A stretch of DNA of 7,626 nt from an uncultured Gammaproteobacteria bacterium (GTDB taxonomy: Bacteria; Pseudomonadota; Gammaproteobacteria; Pseudomonadales; Azotimanducaceae_A): positions 1-7,626 of the forward strand of contig CAJWZG010000136.1 of the NCBI GenBank assembly GCA_913049565.1, read 5' to 3'. Position numbers and translations under genes: made by a program. Below the pieces are notes generated by a model. It searched no databases. It saw only the letters and a program-made list of their open reading frames with translations, and was not told the origin of the DNA. The stretch's first letter is position 1. Every line of letters starts with the position of its first letter. Positions 1,944 to 7,626 of the stretch are shown here, piece after piece.

Positions 1944-3131
1944 ATGGAACTCGATACATTCCGCGAAGAGACCCGAGACTGGCTGGAAACCAATTGCCCG
2001 CAAGAAATGCGCTTGGGCGCTATCCACTTCGAGGATGCCTACGAGTTGTACCGTACCGATGCCGCTATGGAGTGGCGAGATCGCGCACTCACACGGGGCT
2101 GGACTGCGCCGACTTGGCCAACCCAGTACGGTGGCGGTGGCCTCGATGCGGCACATCAAAAAGTGCTGGGCGAAGAGATGGCGCGCATTAAAGCACTCCC
2201 CGCTGCCTCTGGTATGGGACTAGCGATGATCGGACCGACCATCTTAGAAATGGGCTCAGAAGAACAGCGACAACGCCACATCCCGAAAATCATCAGCGGC
2301 GAAGCACAATGGTGCCAGGGCTATTCAGAGCCAGGAGCAGGATCTGATTTAGCTGGCCTACAAACTAAGGCTGTTTTGGACGGTGATCAATTCATTATCA
2401 ACGGCCAGAAAATATGGACTAGTGGCGCACAGTACGCCAACTGGATGTTTGCTCTGGTTCGCACCGACCCGACAGCGCCCAAGCACGAAGGCATTAGCTT
2501 CGTTGTGCTGTCCATGGATCAGCCCGGCGTGACGGTTAAGCCGATCAAACTTATCTCCGGCAGTTCACCTTTTTGCGAAACATTTTTCGATAACGCCATC
2601 GCTAAGCGCGAGGATTTGATTGGCGAACTTAATCAAGGGTGGAGTGTAGGCAAACGCCTGCTGCAATACGAGCGCAATGCGACAACTCGAGCCAAACCAA
2701 AGAAGAAGGCGAATGAAAAACAGAAGTTGAACATTTATGCCAGCACAGCCAAACAGTATCTTGGTGAAGATGCTGCAGGACATATCGCTGACACGGATCT
2801 GCGAAGCGACGTGCTCGAACAGGTGATGAACGAGCGGGCGCTGTCACTGACGACGGCGCGAGTTGTCGAAGAAAGCCGTTCGGCTGGTGCTCCGGGTGCC
2901 GCAACGTCGATCTTTAAGATGGTTGGCTCCTCTCTAACTAAATCAGGCTCCGAACTAAAGTCTCGTTTGCGGGGCACGTCGGGGTTAGTCTGGGACAGCA
3001 ACGAATTCTCTGCTGATGAATTAGAGTCGACGCGCGGCTGGCTGCGAGATCGTGCCGTAACGATCTACGGGGGTACTAACGAGGTGCAGCAGAACATCAT
3101 TGCTAAGCGCGTATTGGGTATGCCGGACTAG
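1944..3131 (+). CDS. Acyl-CoA dehydrogenase (FAD-dependent)
   Basis: A 395-aa flavoenzyme that introduces an alpha,beta double bond into an acyl-CoA and passes electrons to ETF. Order of domains: N-terminal helices (1-115), with 'RGWTAPTWPTQYGG' at 51-64; middle beta domain with the FAD/substrate motif 'QGYSEPGAGSDL' (125-136) and 'INGQKIWTS' (152-160); and the C-terminal helical domain. The Glu found in 'YEGT' of medium-chain enzymes is Gly here ('YGGTNEVQ', 375-382). Glu243 in 'QYER' (241-244) sits where isovaleryl-CoA dehydrogenase carries its base in helix G, so it is the likely catalytic residue. A lysine-rich stretch follows (251-261). The start at ATG 1944 fits the family opening 'MELDTFREETRDWLE' and has GAGAG 5 nt upstream. 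ATGs at 1881 and 1932 and a TTG at 1854 are in frame and possible. It ends tail-to-tail on the amidohydrolase. The substrate is unknown; a branched or ring-bearing acyl-CoA is an inference. Confidence 0.93.
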   Translation: MELDTFREETRDWLETNCPQEMRLGAIHFEDAYELYRTDAAMEWRDRALTRGWTAPTWPTQYGGGGLDAAHQKVLGEEMARIKALPAASGMGLAMIGPTILEMGSEEQRQRHIPKIISGEAQWCQGYSEPGAGSDLAGLQTKAVLDGDQFIINGQKIWTSGAQYANWMFALVRTDPTAPKHEGISFVVLSMDQPGVTVKPIKLISGSSPFCETFFDNAIAKREDLIGELNQGWSVGKRLLQYERNATTRAKPKKKANEKQKLNIYASTAKQYLGEDAAGHIADTDLRSDVLEQVMNERALSLTTARVVEESRSAGAPGAATSIFKMVGSSLTKSGSELKSRLRGTSGLVWDSNEFSADELESTRGWLRDRAVTIYGGTNEVQQNIIAKRVLGMPD

Positions 3132-4552
3132 CTTTCTTTTACCGACTCGCTATCAAAAGCCACCGAGCCGCCAATCAGGGTGGCTCTTACCTGCCCCCTG
3201 TAACCACCCTCAAAGAGCGCCCGTTCCGACCAAGCCTGATGCAACACGCATAAATCCGCCGGCATACCAATACGAATTTCTCGAGCATCGGCAAACGATA
3301 GATCTTGATTCAGCGCATTCATCGGGGTGAGGTAACCCGATAACGCTTCTGCAGCGCTAACGCACTCTTGCTCGCCGACGATCGCGCCAGCTCGGGTTCG
3401 CCGAGTCGCCGCACAGCCAATCACCTGCCAAGGGTCTAACGGACCATAGGGTGCATCACTACTGGCCACGACACACACACCCTGCCGCTGCAATGCGGCG
3501 AAACGATATAAGTCACGCACCTCAATCTCGCTTAAATCGTCGAGATACTGGTCTCCTTTGCTAAACAGAAACCCAGGCTGTGTAACGACCGGCAATCCTA
3601 AGTCAGCTAGCCTGCACGCCATTTCATCATTCACTACCGCGCCATGCTCGATCCGATCGAAGCCGAACTCGCAGGGGGCGGCCTCCTCCAAAGCTGCTAT
3701 GGCAAAAACAAGCTCTAAGTGCGTCACGCAGTGAAAAGCAACATTGCGCCCTTTGCTTCGTGCCGCATTGATACGAGTCACCAGCTGTTCAAGTGGCGGC
3801 AACCGATCGTCGTCCAGCAAAATTTTCAGATAGCCGCTATCTAGGCAATCGCCGCCCATTAAGCTCACCCGTTGGAGTAGTACGCCATTGCACCGCATTT
3901 GTTCAAAGTTCGCGAGCGTATCGAGATTGTTACGCGCTGATGTATCAGTAACGCCTACAATGCCGAGACTGGCGAGTTGTCGAGAAAAAGCTCCGATGTC
4001 TGGCTGATAGGTCGCCTTCGCCGCTCGCATACGCTGAAGTATCAGACCGTCGTTACGAATGATTCGCCCCGACAGCACACCACTCTTGCTACGCTCAACT
4101 CCGTCGATCTGATCTGAATCGCTGAGACCCAGTTCATTCAACGCCAATGAATTGCAGACCCAAATCTTGCCGCTGCGGTGTTGAATGCGGATAGGCCTGC
4201 TGTCGCACAACTCATCTAGCGCCCAGCGGTCTAGGTCACCGAGCTGTTGTTCTTGATAATCAACACCTCGAATCCACCCGTCACCCGATGCCGCCTTAAG
4301 ACGCGCTTCGAGTTCACTTCGACAGTGCCCTTGGCTTGCAGCACCGACATTGCAATCCACCGACTCATAAGAGGCCGCTGCTGCGAACACATGAATATGA
4401 TGATCATGCAGGCCGGGCAGCACTTCGCCGCCACCAACGTCGATTTCCGCCTCGCCGGGTTGAGCCGCAAGCTCGGTCGCTACGGCATCGACGGTTTGGC
4501 CCACCCGCAAGTCCACCCGTCGCCGGTTAATTTGAGCGTTTTTGATTAACAT
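3128..4552 (-). CDS. Metal-dependent amidohydrolase, YtcJ/Amidohydro_3-like
   Basis: A 474-aa cytosolic TIM-barrel hydrolase. 'MLIKNAQI' opens the small beta domain. 'LPGLHDHHIHV' (45-55) supplies the HxH metal pair (His52, His54), and Lys243 in 'YLKILLDD' is placed like the carboxylated lysine of YtcJ-type enzymes. His274 in 'VAFHCVTH', His303 in 'DRIEHGAVV' and Asp366 in 'VVASSDAPYGPLDPW' complete the site. The C-terminal 'GMPADLCVL' (429-437) returns to the beta domain. All metal ligands are present, so an active hydrolase of an amide, imide or formamide-type bond is expected; the substrate cannot be read. The start at 4552 overlaps the CoA-transferase stop in ATGTTAA, and GGAGG lies 10 nt upstream, which indicates coupled translation as the second gene of that operon. 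An ATG at 4576 lies upstream of this ribosome site and is rejected. The stop overlaps that of the acyl-CoA dehydrogenase by 4 nt. Confidence 0.9.
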   Translation of the reverse strand: MLIKNAQINRRRVDLRVGQTVDAVATELAAQPGEAEIDVGGGEVLPGLHDHHIHVFAAAASYESVDCNVGAASQGHCRSELEARLKAASGDGWIRGVDYQEQQLGDLDRWALDELCDSRPIRIQHRSGKIWVCNSLALNELGLSDSDQIDGVERSKSGVLSGRIIRNDGLILQRMRAAKATYQPDIGAFSRQLASLGIVGVTDTSARNNLDTLANFEQMRCNGVLLQRVSLMGGDCLDSGYLKILLDDDRLPPLEQLVTRINAARSKGRNVAFHCVTHLELVFAIAALEEAAPCEFGFDRIEHGAVVNDEMACRLADLGLPVVTQPGFLFSKGDQYLDDLSEIEVRDLYRFAALQRQGVCVVASSDAPYGPLDPWQVIGCAATRRTRAGAIVGEQECVSAAEALSGYLTPMNALNQDLSFADAREIRIGMPADLCVLHQAWSERALFEGGYRGQVRATLIGGSVAFDSESVKES

Positions 4553-5640
4553 GTTGCCGCAGCCTCCAGCGGACACGTTACGCTATTGCCTGCTCTTACT
4601 ATTTTTTGCCGGCACTGTTGCGCCAGTGCGGCCATGGAAAAATCCAACAATCCGCTGTTGCCTCGGGCCATGGCGTCGATCACCGCCAAAGCTGAATAAA
4701 CTCCGGTCAATGGATCCGCAAGGGCGTCACCAACAAAACTCGGCTGACCGACCCTATCCCAGGCCACCAAGCCAGCGCTCACGGCAACATCGTCACCAAA
4801 CCCAACCCATTGATCAGCCGGAGGGGTTCGTCCGTAAGCCGTGATAGACAGCCAAATTTGCGGTTGATTAATAGACAAGGCTTGACGGTCTAAGCCCAAG
4901 GCATGAAGGGCGCGCGGTCGAGACGCTTCGATCACCACATCTGCTCCTCTCAACAGCTCAGCCAATACCTGTCGTTGCTCTGAGTCATTGAAATCCAACT
5001 GCAGCAACTCGTGTCCAAGGTGTAATTGTTCATAAAGTGTCGGACTGCCTGCTTGTGCCCCATCGGGTCGGTGAGGGCTGCTCACTGTCGTGACCTGCGC
5101 ACCACAGCGTTGTAGCAGGTGAGCGCAAAGCGGGCCCGCCCACAGCGCTGAAAGGTCTACAACCTTGGCCTCGGCGAGTGAGCGAGGAAGCGAAGGCCGA
5201 TGATCAAGCGCCATCGCAAGATCAAGGCTTAGAGGGTTTGCCTTGGACCGCGGAAGCACCGCATCAGACTCGAGGCGGGCTAAAGGCAACCCCATCTCTC
5301 GCCCGCGTTCCTGAAGCGGCAAGCTAAGTCGGCCGGCCAGAATCCCTCTCACTGCTTGCCATGATGACAAGATTGCATCTGTCTCGAGCCATGCGTTAAG
5401 CAATTGCCAGTCGGTTTCACGGGCAAGATTAAGAGCGAGCCAACCATCTAAACAACGTATCAACTCGCAGCTGCCGTTAGCCGATCGCAGCCCTTCGGGG
5501 CCAATACCCAATTCTTGTGCTCTAGCAGACAGCACCCACTGCGCCGTTGGGAGTACCGCCGCCGGACAGTATTTGGCAATACCGTTAAGTCCGTGATCGA
5601 CGCAGGCACTGAGTTCATCGGCAGGTATACTCAGTGCCAT
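4546..5640 (-). CDS. CoA-transferase family III (CaiB/BaiF) protein with permuted domain order
   Basis: A 364-aa protein that probably moves CoA between acids. The usual N-terminal signature, 'VVDLSALWAGPLCAHLLQ' with 'CGAQVTTV', occurs at 160-186 instead of near residue 5. It is followed by 'ADVVIEASRPRALHALG' (233-249), 'QIWLSITAYGRT' (261-272), 'VGFGDDVAVSAGL' (279-291), 'DPLTGVYSALAVIDAM' (309-324) and 'LLDFSMAALA' (331-340), and then the protein ends. The part normally C-terminal, a 'DGWLALNLARETDW' strand-helix segment with a helix ending in 'GLPLARL', is found at 51-123. Asp283 or Asp284 is the best candidate for the aspartate that forms the acyl anhydride; the local spacing differs by one residue from the usual motif. 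The start at ATG 5640 is chosen because upstream residues look non-conserved and GAAG is the only ribosome-like site; ATGs at 5676, 5715 and 5751 would run deeper into the crotonase gene. First gene of an operon with the amidohydrolase. Confidence 0.88.
   Translation of the reverse strand: MALSIPADELSACVDHGLNGIAKYCPAAVLPTAQWVLSARAQELGIGPEGLRSANGSCELIRCLDGWLALNLARETDWQLLNAWLETDAILSSWQAVRGILAGRLSLPLQERGREMGLPLARLESDAVLPRSKANPLSLDLAMALDHRPSLPRSLAEAKVVDLSALWAGPLCAHLLQRCGAQVTTVSSPHRPDGAQAGSPTLYEQLHLGHELLQLDFNDSEQRQVLAELLRGADVVIEASRPRALHALGLDRQALSINQPQIWLSITAYGRTPPADQWVGFGDDVAVSAGLVAWDRVGQPSFVGDALADPLTGVYSALAVIDAMARGNSGLLDFSMAALAQQCRQKIVRAGNSVTCPLEAAATC
4563..4567 (-). promoter_or_regulatory. Shine-Dalgarno site of the amidohydrolase inside the CoA-transferase gene
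   Basis: GGAGG on the minus strand, 10 nt before the ATG at 4552 and within the last codons of the CoA-transferase. It fixes the amidohydrolase start and supports translational coupling across the 7-nt overlap. Confidence 0.7.
5605..5638. promoter_or_regulatory. Perfect 10-bp inverted repeat at the divergent starts, candidate operator
   Basis: GGCACTGAGT (5605-5614) and ACTCAGTGCC (5629-5638) are exact reverse complements separated by 14 bp. The right arm ends one base before the crotonase ATG, and the whole element is codons 1-12 of the CoA-transferase. TATACT (5626-5631), a 5-of-6 match to a -10 box, overlaps the right arm; no convincing -35 was found. It could be an operator controlling the rightward gene. 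In the leftward mRNA it could instead form a hairpin just after the start codon. Confidence 0.5.
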
Positions 5641-6688
5641 GTCGAATGCTTCGAAATTTCTCACCGCTAACGTCATTTCGTTGGATACGTTTTGCCAGTT
5701 GCTGCAAAACCCCATGTTGGCTGAAGAACGCAGCGTTGTCAGCGGGTTCAACTATCTCGCCATAGATCTCAATTCTCATAGCGTTTCCGCCCGAGATCTG
5801 CCAATCGCTGCTGCTGCCTGCTGGCGACCGACGACGGTGATTATTGGGCTGTACGAAGGCGCTGTTATGACGCTTCCTTCCCAGGTAAAGACCCTATTAC
5901 CTTTCATTGACGTTGTTGCCGATACCAACACCCCCGAATTCTTGTTAGATACTGCACTCACCAATCTCGCCGCCAACCCGGTGGCCAGCACCACACTGAT
6001 TCAGCTTTTGCGGCAGAGCCAAGACCTGACTGTTGAGCAAGCGCTTATCGCGGAGTCCTTGGCATATAGCAGCTTACAACACGGCTCTGAGTTTCTTGAT
6101 TGGCTTCGATCAAGAGGCACCTCCGGTGATCCCAGCGAGGATAAAGAACCGACTGTACTGATGCAGCGAGACGATGGGCACCTGACAATCAGCTTGAACC
6201 GCCCGGCGAAACACAACGCTTTTTCCGCTGCCATGCGCGACGGATTAACACAAGCACTGCAACTCGCCTCGTCAGATAGCGCAATTAGCAAAGTCACTTT
6301 GCGCGGCACAGGACCCTCATTCTGCGCTGGAGGCGATTTGTACGAGTTTGGTCAAGCACGCGATGCAGCATTAGCGCATGTGACCCGAACCACCCGGTCT
6401 CCCGGACGATTGATCTACGGCGTCTGCGACAAAACTATTGCCCATCTGCACGGTGCCTGCATCGGGGCAGGGATCGAAATGACGGCCTTTGCAGGTCATT
6501 TGATAGCAGCTCAAGGTACTACCTTCGCACTGCCCGAGGTTGGGTTTGGTTTAGTGCCCGGAGCGGGTGGAACCGTAAGCATGCCGCGCCGCATTGGTCG
6601 GCAGCGAACGGCTCTGCTAGCTCTTAGCGGGCAGCCCATTGACGCCGGATTGGCCCATCAATGGGGGTTAGTAGACGCTGTCGAATAA
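5639..6688 (+). CDS. Enoyl-CoA hydratase/isomerase (crotonase) with N-terminal crotonase-tail-like domain
   Basis: A 349-aa crotonase-fold protein, expected to hydrate an enoyl-CoA. The recognisable core is residues 171-349: 'LTISLNRPAKHNAFS' (182-196), the oxyanion-hole motif 'FCAGGDLYEFG' (228-238), Glu280 in 'GAGIEMTAFAG' and Glu300 in 'FALPEVGFGLVPGAGG'. The two glutamates are 20 residues apart, as in rat hydratase (Glu144/Glu164), so hydratase chemistry is plausible. The core stops at 'GLVDAVE', exactly where normal crotonases go on for about 50-70 residues of helices. A segment of that kind lies at 86-160 instead: 'LLPFIDVVAD', 'ALTNLAANPVASTTLIQLL', 'TVEQALIAES', 'SEFLDWLRSRG'. Residues 1-85 ('FNYLAIDLNSH', 'RPTTVIIGLYEG') may be a vestigial crotonase start. 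The start at ATG 5639 keeps this extension; no strong ribosome site is visible, and a -10-like TATACT 7 nt upstream suggests a leaderless message. Divergent from the CoA-transferase and convergent with the acyl-CoA ligase, 9 nt away. Confidence 0.9.
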   Translation: MSNASKFLTANVISLDTFCQLLQNPMLAEERSVVSGFNYLAIDLNSHSVSARDLPIAAAACWRPTTVIIGLYEGAVMTLPSQVKTLLPFIDVVADTNTPEFLLDTALTNLAANPVASTTLIQLLRQSQDLTVEQALIAESLAYSSLQHGSEFLDWLRSRGTSGDPSEDKEPTVLMQRDDGHLTISLNRPAKHNAFSAAMRDGLTQALQLASSDSAISKVTLRGTGPSFCAGGDLYEFGQARDAALAHVTRTTRSPGRLIYGVCDKTIAHLHGACIGAGIEMTAFAGHLIAAQGTTFALPEVGFGLVPGAGGTVSMPRRIGRQRTALLALSGQPIDAGLAHQWGLVDAVE

Positions 6689-6697
6689 GGGTTTAAA

Positions 6698-7626
6698 TCA
6701 GAGCTGCTCGAGGAAGGATGCTTTCACCACACGTCGCAGCAGCTTGCCTGTCTCGTTGTAGGGAAGCTCTGCCCATACTTCCATGTGCGCGGGTACGCGA
6801 GAGCTTCGCAGCTGTTCTTTGACCCAATCTTTGAGTGCCTGCATATCAATATCTGCGCCAGCCTTCGCCACAACCGCAGCTGCGACGGCTTCACCCCATT
6901 GATCGTCGGGAACACCGACCACCGCGGCATCTGCAACCGCAGAGTGCGTTAACAGCACGTCCTCTATCTCGCCCGGCGACAAATTTTCACCGCCGCGCAC
7001 AATCACATCATCTGCACGACCCTCAAGAAATAAATACCCCTCCCCATCCATGCTGCCCGCATCACGAGTTGGGAACCAACCTTCGGCGTCCACAACGGAG
7101 CCTTTCCCCTCATACTCGCCGGAAACTTGCTCGCCACGTACATAGATTTCGCCGCGTTCGCCAGCACCCAGCACCTGACCCTCGTCATCGCGGATCTCGA
7201 TCTCTACGCCGGGCAGCGCTTGCCCTACAGATACCAAGCGACGGCGGCCTGTCGCGGTAGTGCTAGCCACTGCCTCGCGGTGAGCATCGGGGCCCAACAC
7301 ACAAATCGTTGAACTGGTCTCGGTCAAACCATAGGCATTGGAAAAGTCTGTATTTGGGAACAGTGTCATCGCCTTCTCAATTACGCTCAACGGCATCTTG
7401 CCACCGCCATACGCAAGACTGTTGAGATACGGCATATCTGCTGTCGTCGCCCCTTGGGCTTCCAGAGTTTCAACAATCCGCGCCAGCATCGTCGGCACCA
7501 CAAATGCGGTTGTCACATTATGCTGACGCGCCAGCTCGATCCACCGCTCGGCACTGAAGTTCGGCAACTGAATCACATGTCTACAGGAGTAAACCGAGCT
7601 CATAATCGCCGCGATACCCGCTATAT
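6698..7626 (-). CDS. AMP-forming acyl-CoA ligase, 3' part (5' end beyond the window)
   Basis: The last 309 or so codons of an ANL-superfamily adenylating enzyme, which activates a carboxylic acid to acyl-AMP and then to acyl-CoA. The frame stays open to the right edge ('AGIAAIMSSVYS'), so the Met at 7603 is internal. Visible motifs: 'NAYGLTETSST' (YGLTE at 7319-7333), 'GERGEIYVRG', 'GWFPTRDAGSMDGEGY', the hinge region 'LEGRADDVIVRGGENLSP' and, near the end, 'LPYNETGKLLRRVV', whose Lys (codon 6743-6745) is the conserved lysine that acts in adenylation. The P-loop and most of the acyl-binding pocket are outside. The active-site residues that can be seen are all present, so the enzyme is likely functional. 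With the CoA-transferase and crotonase next to it, it probably supplies the CoA ester; the substrate cannot be deduced. Confidence 0.93.
   Translation of the reverse strand, partial: IAGIAAIMSSVYSCRHVIQLPNFSAERWIELARQHNVTTAFVVPTMLARIVETLEAQGATTADMPYLNSLAYGGGKMPLSVIEKAMTLFPNTDFSNAYGLTETSSTICVLGPDAHREAVASTTATGRRRLVSVGQALPGVEIEIRDDEGQVLGAGERGEIYVRGEQVSGEYEGKGSVVDAEGWFPTRDAGSMDGEGYLFLEGRADDVIVRGGENLSPGEIEDVLLTHSAVADAAVVGVPDDQWGEAVAAAVVAKAGADIDMQALKDWVKEQLRSSRVPAHMEVWAELPYNETGKLLRRVVKASFLEQL

What the first reader, a model, noticed from the sequence alone, without database searches (positions are those of the whole stretch)
5639..6688. Crotonase whose C-terminal helical segment precedes the catalytic core
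The core with both catalytic glutamates (280 and 300) ends at 'GLVDAVE' and lacks the usual C-terminal helices that cap the active site and form the oligomer. A segment with the look of exactly that part ('IDVVAD', 'LAANPVASTTLIQLL', 'VEQALIAES', 'EFLDWLRSRG') lies at 86-160, before the core (core DNA 6149-6685, tail-like DNA 5894-6118). This suggests a circular permutation, or a tandem duplication in which the first copy lost its core and the second its tail. The missing helices are not hidden in another frame after the stop, because the ligase gene begins 9 nt on.
Basis: partly seen in the sequence, partly recalled or inferred. Interest (0 to 1): 0.72.

Follow-up and report, generated by a model that had tools for sequence, protein, structure and literature searches.

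The report
Enzyme with tail before its core
A bacterial fatty-acid-type enzyme carries its helical end piece in front of its catalytic body instead of behind it, and the gene beside it shows the same kind of rearrangement in an unrelated enzyme fold, which suggests that fused enzyme pairs can shrink down to a single working site.

Summary
Residues 171-349 are a crotonase core with both catalytic glutamates, ending at GLVDAVE without C-terminal helices. Residues 86-160 match the C-terminal helices of ordinary crotonases, in register, yet precede the core. This is a conserved family: 129 of 130 aligned sequences have tail-like segment and core in this order, and none has over 20 residues after the core. 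It occurs in Gamma- and Alphaproteobacteria, Rhodococcus and Streptomyces.

The displaced tail is well supported.

New here: the divergent neighbour, a family III CoA-transferase, shows the same inversion in an unrelated fold. Ordinary 800-aa tandem CoA-transferases give most of its best matches: first copies for the N-part (90 of 115), second copies for the C-part (98 of 115). Of 194 genomes, 16 carry either odd gene and 12 both.

Proposed mechanism: both folds build an active site from one subunit's core and another's cap. A fused pair that loses one of its two composite sites keeps cap 1 and core 2, the order seen. Packing, oligomer and substrate are untested.

The parts
5639..6688 (+). Crotonase-family enzyme with inverted order: N-part with tail helices, linker, catalytic core; 349 aa
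5639..5923 (+). Residues 1-95: poorly conserved, predicted alternating helices and strands; possible vestige of a first copy's core, or partly the end of the core in a plain permutation
   Evidence: two competing alignments
5936..6118 (+). Residues 100-160: four helices matching the crotonase C-terminal tail; R125 and E139 identical in 130 of 130 rows, S140, Y143, Q147, F152, W155 in 96% or more
6149..6685 (+). Residues 171-349: crotonase core with E280 and E300, ends at GLVDAVE without a tail
6689..6697 (.). 9-nt gap to the convergent acyl-CoA ligase gene, whose 3' end is at 6698
4546..5676 (-). Neighbouring family III CoA-transferase (376 aa from the ATG at 5676), also inverted: small-domain half first, catalytic half second
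5167..5676 (-). CoA-transferase N-part: small-domain hairpin (DGWLALNLA) and helices; decayed first copy
4546..5166 (-). CoA-transferase C-part: Rossmann half with the invariant D321 aligned to the Asp of the canonical GD motif

Best explanation
The protein is a crotonase-superfamily enzyme, most likely an enoyl-CoA hydratase, whose tail precedes its core, and the architecture is best read as a collapsed duplication. (1) Shown: the catalytic core sits at the C-terminus without a tail; a tail-like helical segment sits at the N-terminus; the layout is conserved across a large family. (2) Inferred: an ancestor had two crotonases fused head to tail. (3) From literature passages: in several crotonases the tail of one subunit packs on the core of a neighbour and helps bind CoA or substrate, so a fused pair has two composite sites, core 2 + tail 1 and core 1 + tail 2. 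(4) Inferred: the second site was lost, so core 1 and tail 2 decayed together, leaving tail 1 followed by core 2. (5) Inferred: in the present enzyme the N-terminal helices cap the core's active site, in cis or in a neighbouring chain. [quoted passage not shown]
For: Layout conserved: 129 of 130 aligned sequences (120 with the query, 10 locus translations) have at least 60% of the tail columns and 80% of the core columns filled, and no row has more than 20 residues after the core. Tail homology; a profile search of 177,635 PDB sequences gave 13 hits at E<=10, two of them crotonases, aligned at their C-terminal parts (4jyl_A 175-255, E 0.21; 4fzw_A 188-228, E 0.31); 6 of 25 N-parts hit a crotonase model in NCBIfam at E<=1 (best 0.018). 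Selection: mean majority fraction 0.59 in residues 100-160, 0.41 in 1-95, 0.71 in the core. Model pLDDT 93, pTM 0.92. CoA-transferase: the N-part matches the canonical small domain (columns 256-335, E 1.4e-4, probability 53%) and, before it, 168-198 (P 0.047); the C-part matches 25-223 (E 4.5e-34) and the extreme C-terminus 382-399 (P 0.0085). N-parts have their best hit in first copies of tandem CoA-transferases in 90 of 115, C-parts in second copies in 98 of 115. Composite active sites in both folds: passages of PMC3660561, PMC5834635, PMC3637252, PMC12246613, PMC9196870.
Against: The best alignment of the whole N-part is continuous through the end of the core and the tail, which suits a plain permutation. 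I found no uncollapsed tandem crotonase and did not search for one specifically. The N-part HMM finds 8 of 27 canonical crotonases against 5 of 27 reversed (8 and 6 of 31), which hardly discriminates. Eleven of the 13 PDB hits are not crotonases, among them the two best (spike-protein constructs), designed TIM barrels, an epimerase and Cgi121. No ECH family among Pfam matches of 25 N-parts. CoA-transferase tree: grouping with three tandem second copies has support of only 50/56, and grouping with first copies is not rejected (p-AU 0.46). L128-L131 were found with the N-part query; in L128 the N-part HMM prefers the second copy (27.4 against 1.2 bits) and L099 shows no preference. First copies are more divergent, which alone could make C-parts prefer second copies. 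Packing was not measured.
Confidence: 0.58

Rival explanations
1. Simple circular permutation of a single crotonase: the end of the core and the tail were moved to the front, with residues 1 to about 65 an unrelated or newly acquired extension.
For: Tail and core together make about one complete crotonase. The best alignment of the whole N-part is one continuous stretch of 78 columns through the end of the core and the tail.
Against: Residues 1-95 alone match best the core stretch kPviA...cDlvia (P 0.0069) and are predicted as alternating helices and strands. The neighbouring CoA-transferase has traces of both copies, which plain permutation does not give.
Confidence: 0.28
2. The N-terminal 160 residues are an unrelated helical partner domain fused to a tail-less crotonase; the resemblance to the tail is generic for amphipathic helices.
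For: No curated Pfam or NCBIfam cut-off is reached on the N-part; the N-part HMM hardly separates canonical crotonases from their reversals; 11 of 13 PDB hits are other proteins.
Against: The canonical HMM finds the N-parts about four times as often as shuffled or reversed controls, and at the tail; the gapless 55-column match exceeds 200 of 200 shuffles and the reversal; the missing tail would need a replacement.
Confidence: 0.1
3. Truncated pseudogene or assembly artefact.
For: The core ends abruptly and no tail follows.
Against: Same layout in 129 of 130 aligned sequences and in named isolates; catalytic residues identical in all rows that have them.
Confidence: 0.01

Closest known systems
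Crotonase / enoyl-CoA hydratase superfamily (Pfam PF00378; e.g. PDB 4jyl, 3i47, 3h81)
   Different: No tail after the core; tail-like helices precede it
MenB (DHNA-CoA synthase) and DmdD, crotonases whose C-terminal helices or loop serve another subunit's site
   Same: Tail of one unit completes the site of another (passages of PMC3637252 and PMC3660561)
   Different: There the tail follows its own core; here it precedes the core in the chain, and whether it acts in cis is inferred
Family III CoA-transferases (PF02515), including tandem forms of about 800 aa (e.g. L091, R. rhodochrous plasmid)
   Same: The neighbour gene's catalytic half matches them (E 4.5e-34); sites made of large and small domain of different subunits
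   Different: The neighbour has the small-domain half first and the Rossmann half second in 376 aa

Membership tests
Crotonase superfamily (ECH_1) | Profile match over the core | tested here: met
Crotonase superfamily, hydratase type | Two catalytic glutamates | tested here: met
   E280 and E300 in 129 of 129 rows with a residue there; that they correspond to Glu144/Glu164 of rat hydratase is recalled
Crotonase superfamily | C-terminal helical domain following the core | tested here: not met
   Match stops at profile 173 of 251 and the stop codon follows; no row has over 20 residues after the core; similar helices precede the core
Crotonase superfamily | Trimer or hexamer with the tail on a neighbouring core | not testable with these tools
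   No multimer prediction, no coordinates
Circular permutation of a single crotonase | All elements of one copy present once, order rotated | tested here: inconclusive
   Tail + core fit, and a continuous 78-column match supports it; residues 1-95 alone match core strands instead
Collapsed tandem duplication | Vestiges of both copies with complementary losses | tested here: inconclusive
   Crotonase: competing alignments. CoA-transferase neighbour: traces of both copies, tree unresolved
Family III CoA-transferase (neighbour gene) | Catalytic Asp in the Rossmann half | tested here: met
   D321 invariant in 58 of 58 rows, aligned to the GD of canonical enzymes; that this Asp is the catalytic one is recalled
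Family III CoA-transferase (neighbour gene) | Small domain following the Rossmann half | tested here: not met
   Small-domain match lies in the N-part

The most novel reading that the evidence does not exclude
A general route of protein evolution, 'one-site collapse', has run in parallel in two unrelated CoA-enzyme folds within one gene cluster. Enzymes whose active sites are built from the core of one subunit and the cap of another become fused in tandem, lose one of the two composite sites, and end as a single chain with cap before core that mimics circular permutation. The parallel suggests that the two proteins work together, perhaps as one complex that hands over a CoA ester and tolerates only one site per chain.
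Probability: 0.4. Interest if true: 0.78.

Novelty: new variant of a known kind. Interest (0 to 1): 0.62.

Why it matters
Crotonases and family III CoA-transferases are large, well-studied families, and the records I saw name these proteins only as generic members. If the reading is right, the gene pair shows a concrete path from an oligomeric enzyme to an apparent circular permutant, and makes it testable: separate the two halves, complement in trans, look for the uncollapsed fused ancestors. It also warns that domain annotation which scores only the core misses nearly half of the protein.

Tried and rejected
Mended on recheck: my first canonical crotonase set (31 rows) held 4 rows that were wrong reading frames; I dropped them by HMM score and repeated the tests with 27. 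The tail statistics became stronger on the whole (P 0.019; 107 of 128 against 21 and 33; now P 0.0016; 98 of 128 against 24 and 25). The whole N-part now aligns continuously, which counts for plain permutation, so I lowered the collapse odds and raised the rival's. An earlier test with the first 19 rows gave P 0.04 for the tail and 0.19 for residues 1-85.

Pfam, NCBIfam and PDB sequence searches with the N-part alone gave nothing above curated cut-offs; weak evidence only. Seven weak N-part matches (E 0.016-0.1): six were read by eye and show nothing like a crotonase tail; one was not shown. Free-standing N-parts (149 proteins at E <= 0.01, 120 listed; 11 read): most look truncated or frame-shifted. 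P0322 (160 aa, 1.75-Mb contig) and P0244 (140 aa, 49-kb contig) may be free-standing or broken, which I did not resolve; P0253 runs into a GNAT-like domain on a 1.4-kb contig. The CoA-transferase tree does not place the inverted family with either tandem copy.

Literature (open-licence library only): crotonase + circular permutation (3 papers, listing and abstract starts, unrelated); family III CoA-transferase + circularly permuted (0); enoyl-CoA hydratase + CoA transferase + circular permutation (0); crotonase tail terms (0); cluster terms (0); duplication terms (0); class III / BbsEF terms (0); enoyl-CoA hydratase + circularly permuted (3, listing and abstract starts, unrelated). Searches gave the papers whose passages I read in find mode (PMC3660561, PMC5834635, PMC3637252, PMC12246613, PMC9196870); none was read whole.

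Full report

It is a family. One search scored 7995 candidates and found 3800 at E <= 0.001; of the 120 listed (one is the window's own shorter version), those covering 92-100% of the query are 43-64% identical. In a 130-row alignment (the query, the 119 other listed proteins and 10 locus translations), 129 have at least 60% of the tail columns and 80% of the core columns filled, and none has more than 20 residues after the core. In a 78-row alignment the N-part carries invariant residues (D91, P114, A116, R125, L136, E139, S140, L146, Q147). Glu280 and Glu300 are identical in 129 of 129 rows with a residue there. The mean majority fraction is 0.71 in the core, 0.59 in residues 100-160 and 0.41 in residues 1-95. 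So the N-terminal helices are under strong selection and the stretch before them much less.

Is the N-terminal helical segment the crotonase tail? My first canonical set of 31 rows contained 4 wrong frames; I removed them and repeated the tests with 27 (19). Results: residues 86-160 align best, without gaps over 55 columns, to the canonical tail (score 24.8, P 0.0016; reversed profile 15.0; 0 of 200 column shuffles as high, maximum 17.9). Residues 1-95 align best over 34 columns to the 'kPviA...cDlvia' stretch of the core (20.6, P 0.0069; reversed 17.9; 0 of 200, maximum 16.6). The whole N-part aligns best as one continuous stretch of 78 columns covering the end of the core and the tail (25.8, P 0.0035; reversed 18.2; 0 of 200). 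The last two results compete for the same residues: the first suits a shrunken extra copy, the second a plain permutation with a small overlap. Sequence by sequence, the canonical HMM finds a domain at i-E <= 0.1 in 98 of 128 N-parts (2 of 130 dropped as too short) against 24 shuffled and 25 reversed; 83 of 102 domains lie at HMM midpoints 200-250 (tail) against 4 of 24 and 3 of 25. The sequences are related, so these counts are not independent. A search of 177,635 PDB sequences with the N-part profile gave 13 hits at E <= 10; two are crotonase C-terminal parts, and the other eleven are spike constructs (the two best), designed TIM barrels, an epimerase and Cgi121. The opposite test, N-part HMM against canonical crotonases, hardly discriminates (8 of 27 against 5 reversed), though its best match lies on a tail. 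Predicted structure (78 rows, pLDDT 93, pTM 0.92): H15-22, E39-43, H56-62, E67-71, H81-84, E92-94 and smaller elements, then helices 100-112, 114-127, 132-146, 150-159, then the core. I could not read coordinates, so packing is not shown.

The neighbour shows the same thing. The divergent gene on the - strand (4546 to the ATG at 5676) is a family III CoA-transferase in which the canonical N-half (profile 1-182 of 366) sits at the C-terminus, confirmed by fold (about 166-367 of the model, pLDDT 90, against the first 200-260 residues of canonical enzymes in most rows). Its N-part matches canonical columns 256-335, the small domain (E 1.4e-4, probability 53%), and before it 168-198 (P 0.047); its C-part matches 25-223 (E 4.5e-34) and the last segment 382-399 (P 0.0085). 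Both copies thus seem to have left traces, with complementary losses. The canonical HMM finds 95 of 113 N-parts (of 126; the others lacked the junction motif or were short) against 9 shuffled and 6 reversed. At the position aligned with the catalytic Asp, the N-part has another residue in 16 of 17 rows, while Asp321 of the C-part is invariant in 58 of 58.

Uncollapsed relatives exist for the CoA-transferase. Tandem proteins of about 800 aa occur in the genomes of L001 and L002 and on the R. rhodochrous plasmid. N-parts have their best BLAST hit in a first copy in 90 of 115, a second copy in 16 and a canonical enzyme in 9; C-parts in a second copy in 98, a canonical one in 17, a first copy in none (115 of 127 sequences passed the junction filter; the window's own sequence was put in twice). 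Four of the tandem proteins (L128-L131) were found with the N-part query itself, so part of this is selection. L091 and L100 were not and show the same preference; L099 shows none, and L128 (cut at 697 aa) prefers its second copy for the N-part. First copies are more divergent, which alone could turn C-parts to second copies. The tree makes the inverted family one clade (100/100) but does not resolve its place: with three second copies 50/56, with first copies not rejected, p-AU 0.46.

The two genes travel together. In 194 genomes of the order of G001, the crotonase N-part is in 15 and the CoA-transferase N-part in 13 at E <= 4.3e-25 (3 further genomes match only weakly, in 809-846-aa frames of tandem type). 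12 have both, 3 only the crotonase, 1 only the CoA-transferase (Fisher p 1.4e-15). The centre G001, chosen because it has the gene, is one of the 12. In all 12 the two lie on one contig, 0.5-18 kb apart. In a wider draw of the phylum 2 of 150 genomes, again with G001, carry the crotonase N-part at E < 1e-20. Of 40 plasmid records listed (1667 with any match) I fetched 8: all 8 have the inverted crotonase; 6 have the inverted CoA-transferase and an amidohydrolase near it (Rhodococcus, Streptomyces, Sphingobium); L091 has a tandem CoA-transferase 2.6 kb away and L095 a canonical one. L004 has the inverted crotonase beside a canonical CoA-transferase, the amidohydrolase and the ligase. So the two inversions are linked but separable.

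Mechanism. Passages read say that in crotonases the C-terminal domain packs on the core of a neighbouring monomer and that C-terminal loop or helices contribute to CoA or substrate binding there (DmdD, PMC3660561; DspI, PMC5834635); in MenB it reaches across trimers, and in others it folds back on its own core or covers a neighbour (PMC3637252). [quoted passage not shown]). A tandem fusion of either can therefore have two composite sites. If one is lost, the core of copy 1 and the cap of copy 2 lose their use together, and cap 1 + core 2 remain. This single idea gives the observed order in both genes. It is an inference: the crotonase's uncollapsed ancestor is not in hand, and crotonases whose tail folds back on its own core would not fit the argument.

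Function. With both glutamates kept, beside an acyl-CoA ligase, an acyl-CoA dehydrogenase and a CoA-transferase, hydration of an enoyl-CoA in a beta-oxidation-like pathway is the likeliest role (inference). The substrate is unknown; gene contexts differ between lineages.

Novelty. No paper describing either inversion turned up in the searches listed under Tried and rejected, which cover an open-licence library only. I rate it a new variant of a known kind.

Noticed in passing
window 5638-5676: The crotonase and CoA-transferase genes start head to head: from the ATG at 5676 they overlap by 38 nt, and an alternative CoA-transferase ATG at 5640 shares a CATG with the crotonase start. The 38-nt offset recurs in L001, L002 and L003; the divergent pairs in L093, L094 and L097 are annotated with gaps of 31-138 nt.
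   Followed up: partly
window 4546-5676: The CoA-transferase neighbour has its small-domain half before its catalytic half.
   Followed up: yes
L091, L099, L100, L128-L131: Tandem CoA-transferases of about 800 aa (L128 cut at 697) with two copies each; canonical profile scores of first copies are lower than those of second copies in all seven.
   Followed up: partly
window 3128-4576; L092-L094, L096-L098: An Amidohydro_3-type protein in the window, and proteins annotated as amidohydrolase in the plasmid loci, accompany the two inverted genes; role unknown.
   Followed up: no
L004:4537-5817: Here the inverted crotonase is divergent from a canonical, not inverted, CoA-transferase, so the two inversions are separable.
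   Followed up: partly
P0253: A 244-aa protein joins the crotonase N-part to a GNAT acetyltransferase-like domain on a 1.4-kb contig; it may be chimeric.
   Followed up: no
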